Program-made: the position numbers and the translations under genes
NCBI RefSeq assembly: GCF_032854445.1
Contig: NC_088302.1
Span: 29,102,979-29,166,978 of the forward strand
Length of the DNA stretch: 64,000 bases
Reading direction: 5' to 3'
Source of the DNA: Liolophura sinensis
Taxonomy: Eukaryota; Mollusca; Polyplacophora; Chitonida; Chitonidae
Notes under the pieces: generated by a model
What the model was told of the DNA's origin: nothing
The model's input: the letters and a program-made list of their open reading frames with translations, nothing else
Database searches by the model: none
In this document: in pieces, positions 13,427-31,400 of the stretch
Layout of the letters: each line of letters starts with the position of its first letter
How positions within the stretch are numbered: position 1 is the first letter of the stretch

Positions 13427-16400
13427 TCACCACATGTCACCACTGATGTTGACATATTTGATATCCTTTGATCCGCATGATGATGGTGGCTGACTGGGCA
13501 CTGATGACATACAGCTAGGGAAGGACGTGTTTCTAGGGCCCCCCACAGGGGACTTCCCCAGGTGTGATGGCGGGGAATTCACATAGTTCGGAGACATGTT
13601 TGCGTAGGTTGGGGGTTCATCGACCTGGTAGTGCTCCGTGGGCACACGTCTTGAAACAGTCTGATTTCTCTCCCCCTTCCAAAGGGCCAGCGTGGAGATC
13701 AGTGGGAAGCCCACACGGATAGGCTCATGTTCGTATGAGCAGTTCACGCGACGTTCATCACAGTACTGTAAACCTATTGTCAGCGTCAGAGGTTCCTGAA
13801 AGAACCAAGGGAATGAATTTTTTTATTTATTTGATCGGTGTCTTACGCCATACTCAAAAACATTTCACTTATAAGGCCTGCATTATGGGCGGGAGTAAAC
13901 CCAAGGCAGGTTGCTCGCAGACCTTCTCATTTAAATGAGTTTTTTTTACAGCACGTGCACTTCACAAGTGCTTTATGCATCAGTCAAGGTTGTTACTGCA
14001 AGGTGTATCAGGCCATATAGAATATAATTCCATTCTCACAGCAATACTCGGGGATTTATAACTGTTCAAACAATTCATTTTTTCTTCCACCTGATCTAAT
14101 TTACATGTACAAACACAAGTAACATTATTAGTTAAAAGTTGAAGGCATTAACCAATACCTTGAGTTTCTGGAGGTCTTGTAGGACTATTTTTGTTCGGAC
14201 TGGCGAATCACTCAGCTTCCCAACATCCATCACTGACAATGTCTGAAAACAACATTGCAGAATCATAATTATTTCACAAAATCACAAGTGATAGGTTTAC
14301 AATCCAAATAACACAAATACTACCACTAAAAAATAATTATTAGATACACAATCTACAAGTAAACAGCATAAATACTATTTCTCTTCATGCACTGGTTCAT
14401 ACATTTTACAAAGAACTACACCATAAACTATCTGATATACATGTACTTCCTACCACAATGTTGTTGCCAAGTTTACAACTGTACCCTGCATACCACCAGA
14501 TTTAGTTCGTGTTAAGTTTCTTCACTATAGCCAACCACTGCAATATAAACGTGGGATACTACATAATCCCATACGATATACAATATATACAATATATAGA
14601 AACCCTACGTTGAAAACAGAACACAGACAGCTTCCAAGGCGAGAATGTTAAATCCCGCATACTTTTGTGCAGCCACATGTGATTGGTCAATACGAACCAT
14701 CTCTTCGTAAAAGATGACACCATTAGTATTGCATACTGATTAGCATCATAGGGGATGAATGTAACCTATAGATCCACTGTTATTTACGACGGCCACCATT
14801 TGATTCATCTGACTTCGCAAAGTTCCAGAAGACCAGCCCTTCCTTGGTCATATATATCTTCAGCTCTTACCACTTGTTGTTTGACCTCTGACATTCCACA
14901 CCACCCTGTCAGAAAGTCCCCATCTGGACGTCAGTACCCCATGGTTACTACACTACATGTTATGAGCCGTCTTCTTAGAAAATACTCTTACAGAAGCAAA
15001 TAATAGCCTTTTTTTAATAAAATGATACTTTTGACCTCAACATTCTCCTAATAAGGAATTCTGATCAAATTTCACAACATGCACTTAAGGGTCCCTCAAA
15101 GGCAGATGACTCAATCAGAATCAAGCAAGATGGGTCACTCGAAAAAGCTAACCTTCCAGTGAAATATCATACATGAAATAACCTGAAATAACCAGGACAG
15201 GTAGAAATACTATTCAGTCGACGATGCATTTAATTATTTGACCGTTGTTTACTGCCATGCAAACTCAGCAATTTTTCACTTATGCAAAAATGGTCAGTGT
15301 GGTTATGGGTGGAGGAAACCGGTACATGGGGTAAAACCAATGACAATTGGCAAGTTACCAATGAACTTTTCCATATGTGACGTGCAGATATGCATACATT
15401 ATTGGTACAAGTGAATGTCTTCATTGAACATGAGACTGCATAACCTCTTACCGTCGCCAAGGTCTGACGAACGGAGTGAGCAATACAAGTCAGGCGGAAC
15501 AATATGTGGTGGCTTACCAGGGGTAGGTTGACAATCCATGCATGACAGTCCTTAGTTGTGCCTGGGTTAGTCACGGTGAGGACGATAGACAGAACATTAG
15601 AGAAATCTGCATAGTACTCCAGATCTACTGTCACCCCCAGATGTTTGATGTGAACACGGCAGTTGTCTGGCTTTACTGTCAGGAAAGATAAGCATCTTAT
15701 ACAAAAGCTGATCTCTCTCCACAAAAGAACATCTGACACCATAAATAAACGCTGGTAAAATATAAAAGTAACCACTCTGTCAAATGTGGTATTTTACACT
15801 TTGACACATCGGTGATATTTTACACACTGACACATCGGTTGTATTTAACTCTGACACATCAGCGATATTTTACATCAGTGGTATCTTACACTTTGATGCA
15901 TCCGTGATATTTTACACTTTGTAATTCACATATCAGGGGTATTTTTCACTCTGACACCTCAGTGATGTTTTAAACTCTGACACATAAGTGATACCATTTT
16001 GTTACATTTTTTAAACTTTTAACAAAATAATTACAAGGCTAAATGGCACACATATGTAATAGCGACATCTTTTATGAGATATAATACGTGTATCAAAAGT
16101 TTCGAGGACAGAATCTGTTTTCAATGTTGTCAGAGTACACAGAAATAAACCTTGATTTAAACCAGTCACCTAATTTACGGGAAATGTGGGCTTTCCCAGC
16201 AATTTTTCCCATTTAAGATGTATTAACATGACTGGAAAGTCCTGAAAAATGGGAAAATCATAAAAAAGGTCAAAATTGGAGAGCATAGAAGGGTCGAGTT
16301 TTTTGTGGAATACTTTAGTGTCAGATGTAAAACATAAAAACGAACTGGTGTTCGTCATTCTCTTCATTTGTTGAACAGCTCAATACGGCTGATTTACTCA

Positions 16401-19400
16401 CCATGGGCATTGCACCACAATTCTGTTCGTTCGTTGAAAACCTCAATACGGCTGTTGTACTCACCATGGGCATTGCGCCACAACTCTGTTCCTTTGTTGA
16501 ACAGCTCAATACAGCTGATTTACTCACCATGGGCATTGCACCACAACTCTGTCCGTTTGTTGAACACCTCAATACGGCTGATGTACTCACCATGGGCACT
16601 GCACCACAACTCTGTTCCTTTGTTGAACACCTCAATACAGCTGATGTACTCACCATGGGCATTGCGCCACAACTCTGTTCCTTTGTTGAACAGTTCAATA
16701 CGGCTGATGTACTCACCATGGGCATTGCGCCACAACTCTGTTCGTTTTTTGAACACCTGAGTATGGCCAGTATACAGGATCTTGTCAGCCAGGGATCTTT
16801 CGGGCTCCCCAAGGTTTGTGCTCACTTCAGCGATCTGGTACTTGTTGACCTTAGGGTCACTGCTTATGTCTGGTCAGAAGTACAAACACAAGTGACAGCC
16901 TCAAATAATTCTGGTACATCTTAAGTCTTGTGAATATTGAAGGATACAGACAAGTACAGATCTGAGCAGACTTCAGTATCTGTCTGAAGTGTAACTGTTG
17001 CACATCTCAACTGACAAGCCTTAACCATAGAGGTAATATGCTTGAATTCAGCTACTGGTGAAGCAAACCAAGACTAATAAAGTAATACAAGTCATAACGC
17101 CAAGCAAAAGTAGCGTAATGGTTGAAGGATTTCACTACATGGGTCACACATGGATTTGAACTCAGGTCTCTGCAACCAAAGTCCAACGCTCTACCAACTG
17201 AGCTAAAGGGAAATTCCCACTATATGCTGCTAGTATTAGCACTGGAAAGCTGCTCTCGTTACAGTAGTAATATGACCATAAAGTCAACCAAGGCTAGTAA
17301 TGTGTGTCATAAAGCCAACCAAAACTAGTAACATGGGTCATAAAACTGGCCAAGATTGGTAATGAAGATCATTAAGCCAGCCAAAATTAGTAATATAGGT
17401 CATAAAGCAAACCAAGATGTGTAAAGTGGGTCATAAAGCCAACCAAGACAAGTAAAGTGTGTCAAAAAGCCAACCAAGACAAGTAAAGTGGGTCATACAG
17501 CCAACCAAGACTTGTAATGTCAGTCATAAAGCCAACAAAGACAAGTAAAGTGGGTCATAAAGCCAACCAAGACTTGTAATGTCAGTTATAAAGCCAACCA
17601 GGACAAATAAAGTGGGTCATAAGGCCAACCAAGACTTGTAATGTCAGTTATAAAGCCAACCATGACAAATAAAGTGGGTTTTAAGGCCAACCAAGACATG
17701 TAATGTCAGTTATAAAGCCAACCAAGACAAGTATTGTTGGTCAGTCATAAAGCCAATCAAGACAAGTATTGTTGGTCAGTTATAAAGCCAATCAAGACAA
17801 GTATTGTTGGTCAGTTATAAAGCCAACCAAGACAAGTATTGTTGGTCAGTTATAAAGCCAACCAAGACAAGTATTGTTGGTCAGTTATAAAGCCAACCAA
17901 GACAAGTATTGTTGGTCAGTCATAAAGCCAATCAAGATTAATCTACATCTATTCTCTAATGCACTCAGAAAATACATCTTAAACTTAATTTTACATTATA
18001 CATTTAAAATAAACGAAAATTGTAGCAGTTTTTACCTATGAGCAAATTACTCTTCTAAGAACAAAAGAAATCATTACCTCTTCTCACTTCAGCAAAGACA
18101 CTCTCCACGGGTTTTCTCCTACACAGGTGCTTTCGCAGGTGTTTGACTAGAACTCCATTGGGCTCTGGTAATACAGAAAAAACTTTCCCCAATACATTGA
18201 AATACAGAACCTAATTTAATCCATCTTCCATCTGGAACTTTTATATACATGTCTATGTAGATTTTAGTTAATTGGTTCTTGGTGGTTGCTAATGTTTTAC
18301 AGCAATGAGTTATCTTCATTTACAGATGGTTGATCAAAATTACATATTAGAGTGGTTGGTTTGTTTGCTTTGGGTTTAACATTCTGGGTGTTGATCCACA
18401 ACATTTGAGATCACAACATAACCACCCCGTTCTTTTCGTGAATTAATAAGTTATGATTCCTGAATTACTCATTATCTAGAACTATATTTATTTATTTATT
18501 TATTTATTTATTTGATTGGTCTTTTACGCCGTACTCAAGAATATTTCAATTATACGACGGCGGTCAGCATTATGTTGGGTGGAAACCAGACAGAGCCCGG
18601 GGGAAACCCACGGCCATCCGCAGGTTGCTGACAGACCTTCCCACTTACGGCAGGAGAGGAAGCCAGCATGAGCATCTAGAACTATAGATGTATGGGGGTC
18701 ACAAAAGTAAAACAAAAGTGTGTGACAAAAAGCATCTAAATTACAGGTCATTAATAAAATTCCACATGTCTTGATTCTTTTCCTCGCCAATATGTTTGGT
18801 CTTAAGTGTATGGCACAGTGATTTGAGAGATAATAGCTAGTCAGACATAAATGCATCATACGCATCATATATAATTCTAGACGTGTAAAATCTTCCAATA
18901 AAGATGGAATCAATTTTTATAAATAGAAACATTATTAATAATATCATTGATAAAATTTTATGGAACAACGTTTAAAACACACTTAATATAAATAAATAAA
19001 TATTAAGTACTGTTTTGCAGTTAATAAAAACTAATTAGCCGAACATGTATTAATGAAATGAAACCTTTTTTCTTGTTTTTAAAAAAAAATCTAAGGAATG
19101 GTTTGCCCTCCTCAAATAAATTAATACTATAATTTTCCATATTACAAGAGTTTAATTTTTTGATTGATATTAACTTCATAGTCAGTATTTTTTACTTACA
19201 CTAATACATTCAGTTTAATGAGAAAAGGAAACTGGAGAATCACCAACCAATCTTCACTAAAAGTTACAAATGGCCACATACGTGTCACATTAGCACCAGA
19301 AGCAGTACTATACAATGTACACTGATGCTTTTTTAAATATAGCCACATGTCCAAGTAAGTAGAATATTTTTTAATGTACATGTTTATATCCAAACAAATT

Positions 19401-22400
19401 ACAACTTGTGAAAAGATGGACTGCGCTGAACGTACCATACCGAGCTCCTTAGCCTGCAGCTTACCTTCATTTACCCGAGCTTTGACCTCATCCTGGGTTT
19501 GCTTCCTGTATAAATGGCCCAGTGGCATGTGTTCAGATCTTTTCTCAAACTCATAAGCCCGCATGCCCAAAGTTCTGAAATCATCCAACAGGTACAGTAT
19601 TAAGGAAAGCAGATAGTTACACTTCATGACAAAATTTTGAGCCAAGAATTCTAAAAGCAATAAACCACGCCCTCAGAGGTGAAGTTGACAGGAAGTATAT
19701 GGCATAACATGGAAGTCTTGATTTTATTTATTTATTTGATTAGCGTTTTACGCTGTACTCAAGAATATTTCATTTAGACAACAGTGGACCTCATTATGAT
19801 GGGAGGAAACCAGGTAGAGCCCGACACAGGTTGCTGACAGATCTTCCCATGTACGACCGGACAGGAAGCTGTAAATGTTGAGTTAGGAAACTAAAGACAC
19901 TGCAACATCAATGAATCCATAACAACCTGACATCATTGCCATATACTTTAAGCTCATCACTTCAGGCCTGCTACCACTGAAGATCCATGCTACACTAAAG
20001 TGGTGATGTCACAAACCAGAAAGGTCCATCTCTCATAAGTTAAACATGAAACCATCATATTTATCACCTCTGCTAAAATCGAGTGTTTATTTGTGTGTCT
20101 GTCAGCTACATTACAAAAAAAAAAAATGCATCGAGTTGGCTCAAACTTTGTGCACAGGTTTTAAAGCCGATACATGAAATTCTGGTGGCGTACGAGATGG
20201 GAATCAGGATGCTGGATGAAATTGGCGAGAACTGCAGAGTATTGTCTTAGGTCTGTAGTGCTTGAGGGAAATCTACATGTAGTTTCACGCCATACTCAAG
20301 AAGTTTTAATTTCCAACCCTTCCTACTTGTGATCTACTCACTTGTGTGCTATATTGGAGGACAACAAGTAGTCTTAAACTAAGGCAAGCACCAAAAGTTT
20401 GTATGAAGCAATCAAAAGACCGAGGTCTAACTTACGTAGCATATAAGTAGATGACATTCCCAGATGGTCGAGGGACGTAATGTTCTAGCGATGTGTCGGG
20501 TGGATTATCAGATCTGTAACAAATGATTACACATATAAGCAATATTTACACACAGACAGAGGAACAAATACACTGTAGTTCAATCTCAAATAACAGCCTT
20601 CACAACAGTAAAGATACATCATTCTATGTTGTTTGGGGAAACAGCATTTTATTGAAATTAAATGTTCCTTTCCCAGCTCGTCATGACGATGTCATTATTT
20701 ATTGTATTGATTGGTGTTTTATGATGGCCATGACGTCACAAAGACAAGTCTTGATATAGCAAAGGTTCAAGGTCCTGCTTCACACTAGAGGAAGTGCTAT
20801 TCTGCATCATTTGTAGAATTCAACAAATCTCACCATCTACACAGTTAATGAAATACCCATACATGTAGCATTGGTCCTATTATCATTTGATTACTCGATC
20901 TGACAGGAAGAATAAAAGTGGCATAAAAACTGCATATGGAAAAACACATCTGTGTCACATGTCACTATGAACAAAAACATATCTGTGTCACAGGCCGCTA
21001 TGAACAAAAACACATCTTTGTCACAAGCCACTATGAACAAAAACACATCGGTGTCACATGCCACTATGAACAAAAACACATCGGCGTTACAAGCCACTAT
21101 GAACAAAAACACATCTGTGTCACAAGCCACTATGAACAAAAACACATCTGTGTCACATGCCAATATGAACAAAAACACATCATTGTCACATGTCACTATG
21201 AACAAAAACACATGTGTGTCACATGTCACTATAAACAAAAACACATGTGCGTCACATGTCACTATAAACAAAAACACATGTGTGTCAAATGTCACTATAA
21301 ACAAAAACAAATCTGTGTCACATGCCACCATGAACAAAAACACATAATATTTATTTACATGTATTTATTTATTTATTTATTTGATTGGTGTTTTTTTTGC
21401 CTCAGGAATATTATACTTATATGACGGTGGCCAGCATTATGGTGAAAGCATATCTCCACTGGAGCATTTCTCAGATTTTGGTGAAACCCATGCCCATATG
21501 CGCGATCCTGGTAGATCTTCCCATGTACAACTGAAGAGGAAACCAACACAAGTCGAGCTGAACTCACAGCAATTGCATTGGTGCGACACTTCGGAGTAAC
21601 TGTGCTGCGCTAGCACACTAATCACTAAGCCATGGAGCCACCCCATGGGACACAAAAAGAAACCAATTAAGCCCATGTATTCTAACTCAATTTGTAATTC
21701 AGATTCAGATGCACAATTATAGAGTCAAACCTAAAAGTTATCCAGCAAATGACAGTAGGCAGAGCTTACATGAATAATACTTGGTAGCTTACTTGATACG
21801 GCAGCAGTCCAGGATCATGGTGCAGAGGGCGGGGTTTGCATCCTGCATCTGCTGTACAACTTTCTGGGCGCACAGACAGTTACTAGAGCTGTAGCCTGTG
21901 GGGGCATCCTGCGGCACCAGGTAACACTGACCTTTCTCCTCTATACCATGACCGCAGAAGTAGAACAGACCATACACCCCACTGTTCCCAGGGCCATCAG
22001 ACCTCAGTAAACTGCAGAACTTTTCCACCGCTGCTTCCATCTCCCCCAGGGTCAGGTTTAAAAGGGTGACGACCTTAAAATCCATGGAGCGCAGCAGTTC
22101 AGCTAACACCTGCACATCAACTTTGGGTGCCTTCAGCAAATCAGTGCCAGAGTAATCGTAGTTTCCTATTAGCAAAGCTATTTTGTCTGTCGCTGAAAAT
22201 AAATCACAACATAAATATTTACTTATTTATATGATTGGTGTTTTACGCCGTACTCAAGAATATTTCACTTATACGACCGGGGCCAGCATTATGGTGGGAA
22301 GAAACCAGGCAGAGTCTGGGGGAAACCCACGACCATCCACAACATAAACACATCATGTTACCATCCACATACCAGTCAATGAAAATAACACAGACTTTTT

Positions 22401-25400
22401 AATACTAATTCTGCTTCATTATGAGATTTCTTGTGGTCTTAGGAATGTGTTTTGAAGTTTACCTGAAAAGTAGGATGATGTTCTACTCGAAAAACGTAAA
22501 TGTTACAACCAAAAGTAACATTTCAAAACCTTTCTTTGCTTTTAGAAATGAAATGTTCACATCCTACAGAGCTGAATTCCATGCAATATATTAATATTAT
22601 TCATAAATCACTTTTCAAAAGAAGAAAATTATACAAATTAGATTTTATAAGCATATTTAATAGAGAGTAACTTGATGTCGCACCGTACAGAGCTGAATTC
22701 CATGCAATACATTAATATTATTCATAAATCACTTTTCAAACGAAGAAAATTATACAAATTAGATTTTATAAGTATATTTAATAGAGAGTAAATTGATGTC
22801 ACACCGTACAGAGCTGAATTCCATGCAATATATTAATATTATTCATAAATCACTTTTCAAAAGAAGAAAATTATACAAATTAGATTTTATAAGCATATTT
22901 AATAGAGAGTAAATTGATGTCACACCGTACAGAGCTGAATTCCATGCAATATATTAATATTATTCATAAATCACTTTTCAAAAGAAGAAAATTATACAAA
23001 TTAGATTTTATAAGTATATTTAATAGAGAGTAAATTGATGTCACACCGTACAGAGCTGAATTCCATGCAATATATTAATATTATTCATAAATCACTTTTC
23101 AAAAGAAGAAAATTATACAAATTAGATTTTATAAGCATATTTAATAGAGAGTAACTTGATGTCGCACCGTACAGAGCTGAATTCCATGCAATATATTAAT
23201 ATTATTCATAAATCACTTTTCAAAAGAAGAAAGTTATACAAATTAGATTTTATAAGTATATTTAATAGAGAGTAAATTGATGTCACACCGTACAGAGCTG
23301 AGTTCCATGCAATATATTAATATTATTCATAAATCACTTTTCAAAAGAAGAAAATTATACAAATTAGATTTTATAAGTATATTTAATAGAGAGTAAATAA
23401 AATCCATACCTGTATGGACAGTTCCAACATTAGAGGGCAATGTGGGCACATCATAGTCAAGCCTGAGGAATGCCCCAGCAGAGATAAGCTCCAGAGATCT
23501 GTTCCAAACTCGACATTGAAAACTGCCTTCTTGATCATATGACTTTATGTCACGAATAATGAGTTCATGTCTGGTCTCACCTGATTTTCGGCAAAAATAC
23601 AAAAAAATATAGCAAAAATATTTAACTAAATTTTTACGAAAACATTTGTTTAATAAGTGTTACATCCCTTACTTACACATGTTGGCACATTTTGCTTGAT
23701 TCTGACTGATCCATCCACTGTATAGGGCCACTTCATTTTTTCATGAAGTTTAAGTAATTTCTTAGAAAAAATATTAAAATCATTTTAAGGTATTTAAGTG
23801 CTTCTGAAATTGCATTTTTACATACCAAACTTATTTCACATAGGCAAAATACAGTGTACCAAAAATTCACAGTAATTCTGGACATATGGATGACAGCCTA
23901 CGATTTGTTTAAAGAGCATGCAACTTTTTTATGTACAACAACATCACAAAATCAAGTAAACATCAAAACATCCAAACATCTTTAAGATGTCACATGCTCT
24001 CCTTTAGATATAATCTCGTAAAGCCTTCACATGATTCTTTCAATAGATCATGTCTTAAATTAAAAAATCCAAACTTTTTTAAGCTTGCTTTGGAAGGGTT
24101 TCAAGATCCAAGAGTATAATATTACTCCACTATTGCAGAGCCCATGGAAGCGAAATCTATAGACAAGGAAAGCAAAACAGCACATTTTTTCCCCCCAGTC
24201 ACATGCTTTTACCGATTTTTCATTGGTTAAAATTGAATGGGGGGATGTTCAATTTGCATACAAAGATAAACAGCGTAAATAAGACATTTATTATTCTAGT
24301 TTCTTTCACGTGTTTACTTAACTTGTTGTGAAATGCTCTGGATTCGAACTTCCATCAGACAGCATGTCTGGCCCATAGCCGGTTGCTTACAATACTACAC
24401 CACTCGAGTTGATGTGCTAGAACATGGTTCTTTTTGGCCTTTAAGACAGATGAATATGGTGAGGGTTGAATGCACATGTGTGTGTCACATGCCTTAGTCA
24501 CGTGAACTACATCTGAAAAGGGTCCCCTCCATATATGGCCAACTTCATTCAGCAAAGCATAAATGAACTTACATAAGCAAAGATGTAGGAAGTTACAGGT
24601 AAATATAACCCTAGTCTTCACAAAAGCCATCTGTTTTAAGGGATTATTCCTTTTTTCACACACTTTCACTCCACTTAAATGTGCATTGTTTTCACTATGT
24701 GGAAAATTATAAACAGTATCTTCAGTTTACCTGGCATAGGTCGGCCATCTTTGTACCACTGATAGTTGATTGGAAGTTCACCAACAGCCCTACACAAGAA
24801 TAATGCGTTCCCACCCTTCTCTAGGGCACAAGACTTGGGGTGAGCAATGATATCAAGTGTACAGGTTTCCATTACTGTCGCTGAAAACACCAATAAAGAT
24901 ACAGTTATTCACGCTGTTGGACAAAGCATACAAATGGTCCATGCAGACAAATACACCAGATTTGTTTAAGTTTGGGCCATGAGGTCAAAGCACAGAAACT
25001 GAGAAAAGAAATATTCAATGATGTGGATCCATGAACTTAGATATTTTATTCACTTCATTTACAGCAGTGGCTAAAAGCAGCAACTAACATGGGGAAATAC
25101 TGAAATTACTAAAGATGTCTGGCTGGATAATTTACAATGCATGATGGTGTAAGAGAAAATCTTGTTCTTGCCCTCTGAATACTTGTAAGACCCCATCACA
25201 AGACTAATCCACAAAGCAATAATCAGCTTTCTGAATGAACTGCATTCTACACACAGTTATACTTATGACAATATGTATGCATGCTTGAGTTTTTATGTCA
25301 TACATATGTACTTAAAAGTATTTCAGTCACATGACTCACAAGGAGTTGCTAGATGTGTCCATATTTACTTTGTATTAAGTTAACCCCTTAGCTGCCTTAA

Positions 25401-28400
25401 ACATGTTTTGGAGACAATATCTTTTAAAGAAAGAACTTGGGAGAAACTACAACACTAATGAATAAAAACATGAACCGTTTGCTGGAATAAAGTTATTGTA
25501 AGTGAGTGTGATAAAGAATGCTGCTCTTTCACCAGTACAGCAAGAGTTTCTTCCCCTTACTTTATGGATGAAATTAAAGACATAAAAGAAAGAAAGAAAC
25601 AATGTAGAAAAGAATAAGTTATAATTTATTAGCATTTTTCCTTCACCTACCTTTTGTGGCAGGTTGCAGGACAATTCTGACAGAAATGACTTTGCTTTTC
25701 ATTTTTCCATACTGGTTTTTCACCTGGCATTCATAGCTACCGCTGTCCACAACTGAGGCATAATCCACCTAGAACATCAAAATATGCACAGAACAATACA
25801 ACCAGGCTTGGTATTTATACACAAAATACCTAGAACCTTCATAGCTGAAACTCTCAAGTGAAACATTTCTTCAAATACAATGTTTACATGAATAATCAAC
25901 ACATCATAATAAAGGTTAAAATCTGTTTTCAGTGACAACAAATGAATAATTTATCCACTGTAATACTGTATATCCTGATAGTACAAACTTATTTGTGGAA
26001 ATCACACTTCATATACTGAAACCAAAGTTCCAAAACAACTAGAAATTTACACCTATCCTTATAACTTCATCTACAAGTGAGGCGTACAAAAAACTAGTCT
26101 AACAGGCTGGTTTCCATTTGAGGCTGTCATTACCTTGTACTGGGAGGAAGAACCCATCTCACTGGGCTCAGGGGACCCATTTTTAAACCAGCAATACTCT
26201 AAAGGTTGTGTTCCGATGGCTGACACATAGAGCATTATGGGGGTTCCCATTGACACAGTGACATCTGCAGACTGCTCTAGTATGTGAGGGGGTTGACCTG
26301 CAGGGATTATCTCCCTTGGAATGGGTGCAGAAGTTGGCAGAGAGTCCGGCCAGCAACCTGAGAGGATGGATATGCAAATGAGTTCATATTACTCATGGTT
26401 ATCAATGTATTCCAATGCAGGGTATTTAAATGTGTTGCCTTGTATTTCTCTAATAATGTTAGTAAACAGTTTCTTTCACCAGAGGCAGTAATGTCTGTGG
26501 TAAACATTCATTTTTTGTCAATATTTTTAAATCATATATGTGAGTGAATCATTATTTCTTTCATTTTATGTGTATATTTGTCAATGTTTTCACAAGTTTA
26601 AATCACTTCATAGTTTCCATAACACGTATATGAATTAAAAACATGTAATGTAATGTAAACAGCACGTATACATAAATACGAGAAGACCTAATACAAAACC
26701 CTGACTATTAACAACTATATGTTGGTTCTACATGTGCATAAACCAGGGGAGAATTTAGACTGTCATGATTTAAGCTGAACTCTAAAGCAAAGAAGATAGA
26801 AGTCATAAATAAAAGATCTTTTTGGGTCTTTTTGAAAAAATCATCCTTTTTGAAAGATCATCACCCCACCAATATGGTGTTACTACCCCACCAGTGTGGT
26901 GTTACTTATTACCCACCAATAAGGTGTTACTGTCCCACCAGTGTGGTGTTACTTATTACCCACCAATAAGGTGTTACTGCCCCACCAATGAGGTGTTACT
27001 TACTGCCCCACAAGTGTGGTGTTACTTATTACCCACCAATAAGGTGTTACTGCCCCACCAATGTGGTGTTACTTACTGCCCCACCAATGTGGTGTTACTT
27101 ATTACCCACCAATAAGGTGTTACTGCCCCACCAATGTGGTATTACTTACTGCCCCACCAATGTTGTGTTACTTATTACCCACCAATAAGGTGTTACTTAC
27201 TACCCCACCAATGTGGTGTTACTTACTACCCCACCAATGTGGTGTTACTTACTACCCCACCAATGTGGTGTAACTTACTGCCCCACCAATGTGGTATTAC
27301 TTATTACCCACCAATAAGGTGTTACTGCCCCACCAATGTGGTGTTACTTACTGCCCCACCAATGTGGTGTTACTTATTACCCACCAATATGGTGTTACTG
27401 CCCCACCAATGTGGTGTAACTTACTGCCCCACCAGTGTGGTGTTACTTATTACCCACCAATAAGGTGTTACTTACTACCCTACCAATGTGGTGTTACTTA
27501 CTACCCCACCAATGTGGTGTTACTTACTACCCCACCAATGTGGTGTAACTTACTGCCCCACCAAATGTGGTGTTACTTATTACCCACCAATAAGGTGTTA
27601 CTTACTACCCACCAATGTGGTGTTACTTACTACCCCACCAAATGTGGTGTTATTTACTACCCCACCAATGTGGTGTTACTTACTGCCCCACCAATGTGGT
27701 GTTACTTACTGCCCCACCAATGTGGTGTTACTTACTGCCCCACCAGTGTGGTGTTACTTATTACCCACCAATAAGGTGTTACTGCCCCACCAATGTGGTG
27801 TAACTTACTGCCCCACCAATGTGGTGTTATTTACTGCCCCACCAATGTGGTGTAACTTACTGCCCCACCAATGTGGTGTAACTTACTGCCCCACCAATGT
27901 GGTGTAACTTACTACCCCACCAATGTGGTGTTACTTACTGCCCCACCATTGTGGTGTAACTTACTGCCCCACCAATGAGGTGTAACTTACTGCCCAACCA
28001 ATGTGGTGTTACTTACTGCCCCACCAATGTGGTGTTACTTACTGTCCCACCAATGTGGTGTTACTTACTGCCCCACCAATATGGTGTTACTTACTGCCCC
28101 ACCAATGAGGTGTTACTTACTGCCCCACCAATGAGGTGTTACTTACTGCCCCACCAATGTGGTGTTACTTACTGCCCCACCAATGTGGTGTAACTTACTG
28201 CCAAACCAATGTGGTGTAACTTACTGCCAAACCAATGTGGTGTTACTTACTGCCCCACCAATGCGGTGTAACTTACTGCCCCACCAATGTGGTGTTATTT
28301 ACTGCCCCACCAATGAGGTGTTACTTACTGCCCCACCAATGTGGTGTTACTTACTGTCCCACCAATGAGGTGTAACTTACTGCCCAACCAATAAGGTGTT

Positions 28401-31400
28401 ACTTAGTGCCCCACCAATGAGGTGTAACTTATTACCTTCCTGTGGTCTCTGTGAGGTATAATTTGGATTAGGTGCCACATTTACAGAGGAAAACGTGAAC
28501 ACCGCCAAATCCAGGTCTGAGGAGTTGTGTATACGGCAGCTGTATGTTCCCGTGTCTGACTGACTGCAAACACAAACATATCATGTCTATCAATTCTTCT
28601 GAATGCTTTATAGTTACTGTGCCACAATATTAAACTGACATCATTTCCAAAATTTTTCTATTTATTTATTTTTATGCCATATTCCAGAATATTTCACTCA
28701 AACATAAGAGACTCTTTTTAAGCCAATAACAACCATTTCCATGAACACTTTTCAGGACAATCTGAATCCTCTTTTCTACTAAGTGTATGACATTGTAGAA
28801 TAACCCAATTTCTCCGCTAGATACCTACTCAGTCTATCAAATCTGGACAGGCAAACTGCACAGATATCCTATAAGAATCAAAAGTCTTGCAAATCTGACC
28901 AATTATGGGCAGTCTTAGAAATAGGTATACATGTACATCAGATTTTTTTATCTCATTAGAACCAAGCTCTTGTCCAATTTAATTCAGTTTGACAAGGCTT
29001 CGGTTGAAGTCTGTACTAAAACAAACAAAAAAATGAATCCACAGCTGAGTAAATACCAAACTGAACCTACGTCATGTGATTTAATGTAAAATAAATTAAA
29101 AAGAAGCCTTGTAAACTTTAATGATTCTGCACAAGAGAGCAAATCATTTGTAGCTATAATTAAGCATCTCCATATATTGGAATGAGCAATTTTTTTTTTT
29201 TATGTATCTTTTAACATGGGCCTCAAGAGCCATTCAGTACAGGGCCTACATGCAAGATGACATGAAATCCAATTCTGGGATGTCACAGCTACAAAACTGC
29301 GAAATTGTGTTGGATGTATTCCACAAACACAGCGGTTGGATATGGAATTCATCCAATTTCCACCAGTTTCATGCTTGTGTGGATTTACTAGTGATGACAC
29401 ATGGGAACTCATAGATGAGATGTCTATGAGTATCGACAGACACATTTGGCAGACAACAACATAGTGTACTGAGGACAGCACAGGCAGAGGTGTTCAAGGT
29501 AAGACTATGGAACGAGATAGGGTTGTGATTGTATATGTAATCATAGCCCTACAAGGCTAGTGTAAACATACCTGGCAGAAGGAATCATGAAGGTACATGT
29601 AATGAGTTACCTGTAAGCACAGCACTATCAAAACCATGACTTCACAGAGAGATCACACGACAAGCAGCAGCTAGATGACAGCTTACCTGATATCAGGTAT
29701 CATCAAAGTACTGTCTGTCGCTCCCTGAATTTCATCGTCGCCCTTAAACCACTGGAAACGAGGATACGGAAATGCCGTGGCTGACACAGCCAGCGTCAAT
29801 GTGTCACCCTCCATCAACTTCACTTTCTCCCTCGGCGCGGAAATAACCTTGATCTTCTCTGAAAATGATGGGAGTCAAAACATTACCATAATTTAATACA
29901 GAACCAGTTTCCAATGTCTCACATAAATTCAGCCAAACCAACTCAAAAACTAAATTGAAATAGGTATTGGTAATTGTGCAAGTTAAACATGCAAACAGGT
30001 CATGGAAAACTGTCTGAGCCTAGGTATATGTCACTGTACCTGGCCTTGAACAGGATGCTACAAAATTTATCACACTCACCGGACTGAATATTGCACCAAG
30101 GGGAATCAGTGCAGCAAACTGTATGACATTCAGCCTGGTGAACCCAGTTGACAAATCCTGTACCACCCAGCACAGGGCCATGTAACATATTTATCACTAT
30201 TATCAATAAACTTTATCAAATGTTGACTGTAAACTTTCACAAATTCGATAGTCGTTATTCATTGTGGCGACAAAGGAATCCTTGGGCTGTATGTAATGTG
30301 CCTCCCTGTTGCAGGACGGATTTCCACCGCTCTTTTATTTAGTGTTGCTTCACTGAGACGATTTACCAAAGGCAAGTAACCGCCTCACCCAAGCCATTAT
30401 ACACAACTTTTTCCTTTAAAGACTTAGGTGTGACTCAACCCAGAATTGATCCTGGATCTACCGCTCCCGAAACAAACATTTCCCAAGGAAGCACTGTCTT
30501 GTCATTTTCCAAGCAAGCATTGCCGTGTGATTTTCCAAGCAAGCATTGCCGTGTGACTTTCCAAGCAAGTATTGCCATCATAATTTTTAAGCAGGCAGTG
30601 CCATATGATTTTCAAAGCAAGCATTAACTTCCCATGTGACTTTCCCAGCAACTCCATGTGACTTTTCAAACACGTATTGCCATGTGATTTGCCAAGTAAG
30701 CAAAGCTTCCCCTTAATATACTCAAAGAACTTTTTTGAAAGTTTTATAAAGCATCTACCTGTTTGGTTTGTATTTAATACCGCTATAAAGCATTACACCT
30801 GTCATGGTTAGACAGTATGTCACTGTAGCACACAACTCTGTCACTAATGAAAACACATTTATAGCGTTGCCTCACTGAAATGCCCTGAAGGAGACACCTA
30901 ATCAGCTACGCCACCAGTACAGTCAAACTGACATCAGACTGGACATACTTCGCCCTACTCTTCTGCTGATTGATGAGCACTGGTTTTGGAAAGTATCAAT
31001 ACCTGGCACTGTTTTTCTTAAGTCTAAGGTACATGTATGACCTGCTTTGGGTTTGAACCCCAGATAGGCTGACAGATTATAGAAAATGACACCGACTTTC
31101 ACCCAAATACATGTATGACTAAGTTAGACATTTTGCCTGATTCTGTTGATTGTAAGGAGCCTTCATGGCCAGAATGTGATGACGGATGAAATATTCTCGA
31201 GTATGACATACAATACCAATCAAACCCAAGTATTGATCTTACAAAGGTGTTCTGAGGTTTGATTGGAGAGTGTGTATTGGGCGAGATCCAAATGAAAAAG
31301 TTAGTTTCAGCACTAATAGTGAAAATTTATGATGCTGATCTGCCTGAGATTACCGTAGGGTTTTAAGTCCAGGAGAAGATATTCCCAGCCCAGGGCATCC

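What the first reader, a model, noticed from the sequence alone, without database searches (positions are those of the whole stretch)
16372..16869. Six tandem copies of an exon end plus its splice donor in MALT1, four usable in frame
The last 33 bp of MALT1 exon 13 and the following donor are part of a 63-bp unit repeated six times, and every unit keeps CCCATG|GTGAGT. Because 63 is a multiple of three and the frame is open through four donors, donor choice could lengthen the protein by 0, 21, 42 or 63 residues (ELWRNAH ... EYISRIE) between the caspase-like domain and the C-terminal Ig domain. In human MALT1 that junction transmits ubiquitin-dependent and allosteric activation. The fourth donor is the last usable one, since its own unit then reads TAA. 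If spliced, this is a built-in protein length polymorphism of a signalling protease.
Basis: partly seen in the sequence, partly recalled or inferred. Interest (0 to 1): 0.78.

Follow-up and report, generated by a model that had tools for sequence, protein, structure and literature searches.

The report
Repeated splice donor in chiton MALT1
A chiton immune-protease gene carries six copies of an exon's end and its splice signal; the first signal probably does the work and the rest sit in the intron as decoys, and the same kind of repeat turned up at a few per cent of the exon edges sampled in this genome.

Summary
The array is real: six 63-bp units (16756-16379, minus strand), each keeping CCCATG|GTGAGT, at the end of exon 13 of a MALT1-like gene. 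Donors 1-4 are in frame; donors 5-6 follow a stop. Assembly figures point to the chiton Liolophura japonica.

The protein-length reading is not supported. Donor 1 aligns to human MALT1 with no insertion. Units differ mostly by amino-acid changes, and units 4 and 6 carry TAA. Of 14 such arrays, 4 have a unit divisible by three, as chance gives.

The structure fits the "mirage" minisatellites of amphioxus, tandem copies of exon/intron boundaries reported not to disturb splicing. In the same gene, arrays after exons 4 and 8 also appear to copy their exon ends.

It recurs: of 100 sampled kinase and kinesin exons, 6 donors and 3 acceptors are spanned by such arrays. Most likely only the outermost site is used (exon definition; inferred, no RNA seen). 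A known kind, here in a mollusc and common: many exons with several near-identical splice sites, testable with existing RNA-seq.

The parts
16717..16869 (-). Exon 13 of the MALT1-like gene (153 bp), end of the caspase-like domain up to TELWRNAH; last base is donor 1
   Evidence: spliced frame joins exons 9-16; alignment to human MALT1
16694..16756 (-). Unit 1 of the 63-bp array: last 40 bp of exon 13 plus 23 bp of intron; donor 1 after 16717
16631..16693 (-). Unit 2; donor 2 after 16654, in frame (+21 aa)
16568..16630 (-). Unit 3; donor 3 after 16591, in frame (+42 aa)
16505..16567 (-). Unit 4; donor 4 after 16528, in frame (+63 aa); TAA at 16522-16520 just after it
16442..16504 (-). Unit 5; donor 5 after 16465, would follow a stop
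16379..16441 (-). Unit 6; donor 6 after 16402, would follow a stop; TAA at 16396-16394
15518..15675 (-). Exon 14, start of the C-terminal Ig domain; acceptor for exon 13
13428..22192 (-). Exons 9-16 of the gene as joined here: 22192-21793, 20513-20436, 19574-19465, 18164-18078, 16869-16717, 15675-15518, 14242-14159, 13795-about 13428
   Evidence: Peptidase_C14 E 1.9e-25 and MALT1_Ig E 6.4e-11
26864..28435 (-). 26-bp unit, about 62 copies (TRF 26864-28431), starting at the donor of exon 4 (first intron base about 28435, read by eye); 39 GTAAGT and 11 GGTAATAAGT in 28460-26850
22557..23410 (-). 121-bp array, 7 copies (TRF 22557-23398), after the donor of exon 8 (last exonic base 23410, read by eye); unit resembles exon 8 end plus donor

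Best explanation
The array is a boundary-spanning minisatellite (a 'mirage'). A tandem duplication of 40 bp of exon 13 plus 23 bp of intron, later expanded to six copies, put a ladder of identical donors at the start of the intron. Shown: the anatomy, that donor 1 gives the human-like protein, that copies vary without sign of codon constraint, and that the same anatomy occurs at several per cent of sampled exon edges, at donors and acceptors. Inferred: that the spliceosome uses the outermost site (the 5'-most donor, the 3'-most acceptor), because exon definition favours the shortest exon, so the repeats are removed with the intron and behave as near-neutral decoys.
For: Array and gene model. 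Collinearity with human MALT1 at donor 1. In units 1-4, 7 of 9 variable columns change an amino acid or make a stop; units 4 and 6 carry TAA (read). Two more arrays in the same gene start at or near donors and align to their own exon ends: score 24 for exon 4 (no random control run) and 23 for exon 8 (best of 287 random 74-mers 21). Exons not chosen for repeats: donors spanned in L099, L107 (kinase), L123, L137, L152, L178 (kinesin), 6 of 100; acceptors in L086, L088 and L127, 3 of 100. TRF unit length is a multiple of three in 4 of 14 donor arrays (P of 4 or more by chance 0.74); donor 1 to the next intact donor copy in 5 of 13, L123 having none in its piece. In six arrays not found by the donor pattern (MALT1, L099, L107, L123, L137, L178) 22 of 24 decoys keep GT; the donor 9-mer varies 4.2% against 6.8% elsewhere, Fisher P 0.18. 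Precedent.
Against: No RNA was examined, so use of donor 1 only is inferred. All six donors in MALT1 are identical, and in L107 (4 of 4 decoys), L008 (4 of 4) and L009 (6 of 9) decoys score higher than the first donor, so strength alone does not explain a choice of the first; L008 and L009 were found by a pattern that asks for strong donors. Donors 2-4 in MALT1 happen to be in frame, so their use need not be harmful. Decoy donors are slightly less varied than the rest of the unit, though not significantly.
Confidence: 0.8

Rival explanations
1. Donor choice is used: the gene makes proteins longer by 21, 42 or 63 residues between the caspase-like and Ig domains.
For: Donors 1-4 are identical and in frame; the insertion point is the region of human W580. 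In human genes, repeats at exon-intron boundaries can change splicing (PMC2812944, abstract and passages).
Against: Frame-keeping spacing is at chance level across arrays; stops in units 4 and 6 and mostly amino-acid-changing differences; the insert would add further copies of the segment carrying the allosteric tryptophan.
Confidence: 0.1
2. The inner donors are used at a low, noisy level and the products are mostly harmless or degraded, with no regulated role.
For: Equal donor score at all six sites; donors 5 and 6 would give premature stops.
Against: Amphioxus RT-PCR results are described as suggesting no interference with regular splicing. Not tested here.
Confidence: 0.07
3. Assembly artefact: collapsed or expanded copies.
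For: The genome is heterozygous, about 1.2%, and short arrays can be misassembled.
Against: Units differ from one another (87-97% identity); the published assembly is from HiFi reads averaging 8.3 kb; similar arrays recur at many unrelated genes.
Confidence: 0.02

Closest known systems
Mirage minisatellites of amphioxus (Adh3, globins BflGb6 and BflGb9, troponin C, PGBD5)
   Same: Tandem copies of an exon/intron boundary with splice signals repeated in units; unit lengths in print 10-160 bp; both donor and acceptor sides affected (PMC3087553 and PMC3902484, passages only).
   Different: Here most likely a mollusc, and seen at several per cent of sampled boundaries rather than at single named genes. 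Normal splicing and haplotype length variation are reported for amphioxus but were not testable here.
Internal tandem repeats at exon-intron boundaries of recently duplicated human genes
   Same: Minisatellite units at boundaries that can alter gene structure (PMC2812944, abstract and passages).
   Different: Those are variable repeats between primate paralogues with transcript support for altered splicing; for the MALT1 array no second gene copy was looked for and no transcript was seen.
Intron gain by tandem duplication of AG/GT proto-splice sites (Rogers model)
   Same: A duplication containing a splice site is the starting event; PMC3087553 links mirages to it (passages).
   Different: No new intron is seen here; the old intron gained copies of its own donor.

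Membership tests
Mirage minisatellite | Repeat unit spans an exon-intron boundary and includes coding sequence | tested here: met
   40 bp of exon 13 plus 23 bp of intron per unit
Mirage minisatellite | Splice signals repeated in the units | tested here: met
   CCCATG|GTGAGT in 6 of 6 units
Mirage minisatellite | Unit length within the reported 10-160 bp | tested here: met
   63 bp; reported lengths
Mirage minisatellite | Normal mRNA splicing despite the repeats | not testable with these tools
   no transcript data available
Mirage minisatellite | Length instability between haplotypes or tissues | not testable with these tools
   no second haplotype seen; the array occurs once in G000
MALT1 (paracaspase with C-terminal Ig domain) | Caspase-like domain followed by MALT1 Ig domain, collinear with human MALT1 | tested here: met
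   Peptidase_C14 and MALT1_Ig above cut-off; phmmer to 6f7i E 2.3e-51 in two stretches
MALT1 (paracaspase with C-terminal Ig domain) | N-terminal death domain and two Ig domains | not tested
   upstream exons read by eye only
Coding tandem repeat that varies protein length | Unit a multiple of three | tested here: met
   63 bp; but only 4 of 14 such arrays here, as by chance
Coding tandem repeat that varies protein length | Open frame through all copies | tested here: not met
   TAA in units 4 and 6
Coding tandem repeat that varies protein length | Copies kept by codon-level selection | tested here: not met
   7 of 9 variable columns in units 1-4 change the residue or make a stop (read)

The most novel reading that the evidence does not exclude
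In this chiton genome tandem arrays form preferentially at splice sites, so that thousands of exons are flanked by ladders of their own splice site. Something tied to the boundary (for example transcription with the nascent RNA paired back to DNA, or duplication between AG/GT sequences) would start the duplications, and exon definition would hide them from selection.
Probability: 0.35. Interest if true: 0.82.

Novelty: new member of a known kind. Interest (0 to 1): 0.62.

Why it matters
How splicing picks one site among equal neighbours is usually studied with engineered constructs (general knowledge). A genome in which several per cent of sampled exon edges carry ladders of near-identical donors or acceptors is a large natural experiment, and RNA-seq from five tissues of this species has been made. 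It also suggests that mirages are not confined to cephalochordates, and gives raw material for testing intron gain by tandem duplication. For MALT1 itself the likely consequence is small.

Tried and rejected
Protein-length polymorphism as the main reading: rejected on spacing statistics, stops and lack of codon constraint. Enrichment of the donor motif among all tandem arrays: not shown. AGGTAAGT three times at 12-42 bp spacing gives 203+347 overlapping matches against 230+159 for the reversed letters; both listings are capped and reach only contig C1, where I counted by eye 15 distinct arrays each. Of the 15 donor-motif arrays fetched, 7 copy, as read by eye, an exon end plus donor (L005, L008, L009, L011, L013, L014 and, weakest, L012), 2 filled the fetched piece (L001, L010), and L002, L003, L004, L006, L007, L015 show none or are unclear. 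Ten upstream frames, one from each of ten of these loci, were sent to Pfam and 2 had a hit (L005 Branch, L009 Glyco_hydro_31); L011, L013 and L006 had no hit among solved structures at E 0.01. Protein names that I wrote for other exons in notes were recollection and are not claimed. Among the reversed-letter arrays (L066-L082) one starts 11 bp after a likely donor (L080) and none clearly copies an exon end; one (L067/L068) had no flank and others had only one side. This control is not symmetrical, because the first pattern itself selects a donor.

A family search for MALT1_Ig in the genome found nothing, and its controls rang nowhere, so it says nothing; phmmer of exon 13 with its read-through and of the exon 14 frame found no MALT1.

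In the exon sample L175 (30 bp, 2.4 copies at a donor) was dropped as too weak, and arrays with units under 20 bp were not counted. The script's donor for L147 was wrong (its array starts about 55 bp after the donor read by eye); L123 was settled by eye. Other splice positions are script predictions. The tallies of 24, 15, 14 and 9 arrays were made by hand and then entered.

Full report
What is there. On the minus strand the window holds a MALT1-like gene. Exons 9-16 join in one open frame; the joined protein matches human MALT1 (6f7i, E 2.3e-51) and the Pfam models Peptidase_C14 (1.9e-25) and MALT1_Ig (6.4e-11). Exon 13 ends at 16717 with CCCATG|GTGAGT. From 16756 to 16379 this exon end and the first intron bases are repeated six times with a 63-bp unit (40 bp exon, 23 bp intron), donor intact in 6 of 6.

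Species. G000 has 609,464,459 bases in 632 contigs; of the 20 contigs whose lengths I asked for, 13 are long, the longest 96,433,062 and one 37,343,639. PMC11068029 (passages) gives for Liolophura japonica, a chiton, 632 scaffolds, longest 96,433,062, N50 37,343,639 and 13 pseudomolecules. Two figures differ slightly: its total is 609,495,693, and it lists a scaffold of 30,102,928 where G000 has 30,099,635. I read this as the same assembly, trimmed.

Does donor choice make longer proteins? Donors 2-4 would add 21, 42 and 63 residues; donors 5 and 6 would end at the TAA of unit 4. In the alignment to human MALT1 the tryptophan and AH of TELWRNAH meet the human tryptophan and AH with no insertion, so donor 1 gives the conserved length. 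By recalled numbering the human residue is W580, whose orientation is discussed with the allosteric site in PMC11252132 (passages). Of nine variable columns in units 1-4, seven change a residue or make a stop (read). A 63-bp unit has about a 37% chance of lacking a stop in one frame (61/64 to the power 21), so the open run is not remarkable.

The same gene has two more such arrays. The 26-bp array of about 62 copies begins at the donor of exon 4, and a unit aligns to the exon end plus donor (score 24, no random control); the 121-bp array begins 12 bp after the donor of exon 8 by TRF, and its unit aligns to that exon end plus donor (score 23; the best of 287 random 74-mers from the gene scored 21). 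By my gene model, read by eye upstream of exon 9, this makes 3 of 15 donors; the exon parts of these two are diverged and less sure than exon 13.

It is common in the genome. I took 40 of 138 kinase-domain matches by match length before seeing their DNA, with 450 bp on each side, and 60 of 132 kinesin-domain matches in table order, skipping longer ones or those with more than one stop, with 350 bp on each side. Arrays span the donor in L099, L107, L123, L137, L152 and L178 (6 of 100; 95% interval 2.2-12.6%) and the acceptor in L086, L088 and L127 (3 of 100; 0.6-8.5%). Of 24 arrays that I counted in the flanks, 15 have an edge within 60 bp of the boundary, against an expected share of 24/82 (P 0.0007). 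If the 15 arrays that do not span a boundary mark the background (about 78 kb of flank), about 2.3 spanning arrays are expected in 200 boundaries and 9 are seen (P 0.0006; with an expectation of 3.2, P 0.006). The tallies are by hand, the positions partly script predictions and the sample small, so the excess is suggestive; the occurrence itself is clear. With 28,010 protein-coding genes, a rate of this order would mean thousands of arrays, which is an extrapolation.

A second, selected sample shows the anatomy well. Of 15 arrays found by a donor-motif pattern on contig C1, 7 repeat an exon end plus donor as read by eye; two of those exons have Pfam support (L005, L009). The reversed-letter pattern gave 15 arrays, one starting 11 bp after a likely donor and none clearly copying an exon end. 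The two patterns do not differ much in total matches, 550 against 389, so arrays as a whole are not shown to be enriched in the donor motif.

How it probably works. Over 14 donor arrays (MALT1; L099, L107, L123, L137, L152, L178; and seven from C1) the TRF unit is a multiple of three in four (63, 63, 39, 36), as chance gives. From donor 1 to the next intact donor copy the step is a multiple of three in 5 of 13 (MALT1, L005, L009, L014, L152; L123 has none in its piece), about the 4.3 expected; in the other 8 it would shift the frame. In six arrays not found by the donor pattern 22 of 24 decoys keep GT, and the donor 9-mer is not significantly more constant than the rest (4.2% against 6.8%, P 0.18). 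In L107, L008 and L009 most decoys score higher than the first donor (4 of 4, 4 of 4, 6 of 9). The simplest account is that the spliceosome pairs sites across the shortest exon, so the 5'-most donor and the 3'-most acceptor win and the copies leave with the intron. This is inference; no RNA was seen.

What is known. Tandem copies of exon/intron boundaries are called mirages in amphioxus, described at Adh3, globin, troponin C and PGBD5 genes, with both boundaries affected, length differences between haplotypes, and no apparent interference with regular splicing (PMC3087553, PMC3902484; passages only). The original Adh3 paper was not held. Boundary repeats are also known in duplicated human genes (PMC2812944, abstract and passages), and intron minisatellites in earthworm metallothionein genes (PMC12783039, passages). 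Searches showed me no report of such arrays in a mollusc; these cover only the held library, the listings are partly capped, and one listed paper with all terms (PMC5405514, on telomerase) was not opened. The MALT1 array is thus a new member of a known kind; its commonness in a chiton is the part that appears new.

Verdict. Observation confirmed; protein-length interpretation unlikely; ordinary for MALT1, interesting for the genome, because existing RNA-seq could show how one splice site is chosen among near-identical copies at many exons.

Noticed in passing
window 20940-21345: 33-bp unit, 12 copies, in intron 9; on the gene strand most units have a T-rich run before TAG, resembling an acceptor. 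No exon start next to it was seen.
   Followed up: no
window 17277-17937: 31-bp unit, about 20 copies, in intron 12, about 140 bp after the exon 12 donor; relation to that boundary not tested.
   Followed up: no
L086, L088, L127: Acceptor-side arrays: units repeat the end of the intron with AG plus the first bases of a kinase or kinesin exon.
   Followed up: partly
L107, L008, L009: Most decoy donors match the consensus better than the first donor; L008 and L009 were found by a donor pattern.
   Followed up: partly
window, about 18490-18700, 19720-19890, 21360-21540, 22215-22345: Related interspersed copies on the gene strand, several ending in AAATAAAT runs; they look like a SINE family. Family name not tested.
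   Followed up: no
G000 C8:30110489-30225929 and C5:13465676-13476590: Five kinase-domain matches each within a short stretch, with open frames of similar length in most; probably local gene clusters.
   Followed up: no
L006 (G000 C1:3804600-3806400): Array appears to start at a GC-type donor (CAG|GCGAGT) after an open exon-like frame; protein identity not confirmed.
   Followed up: partly
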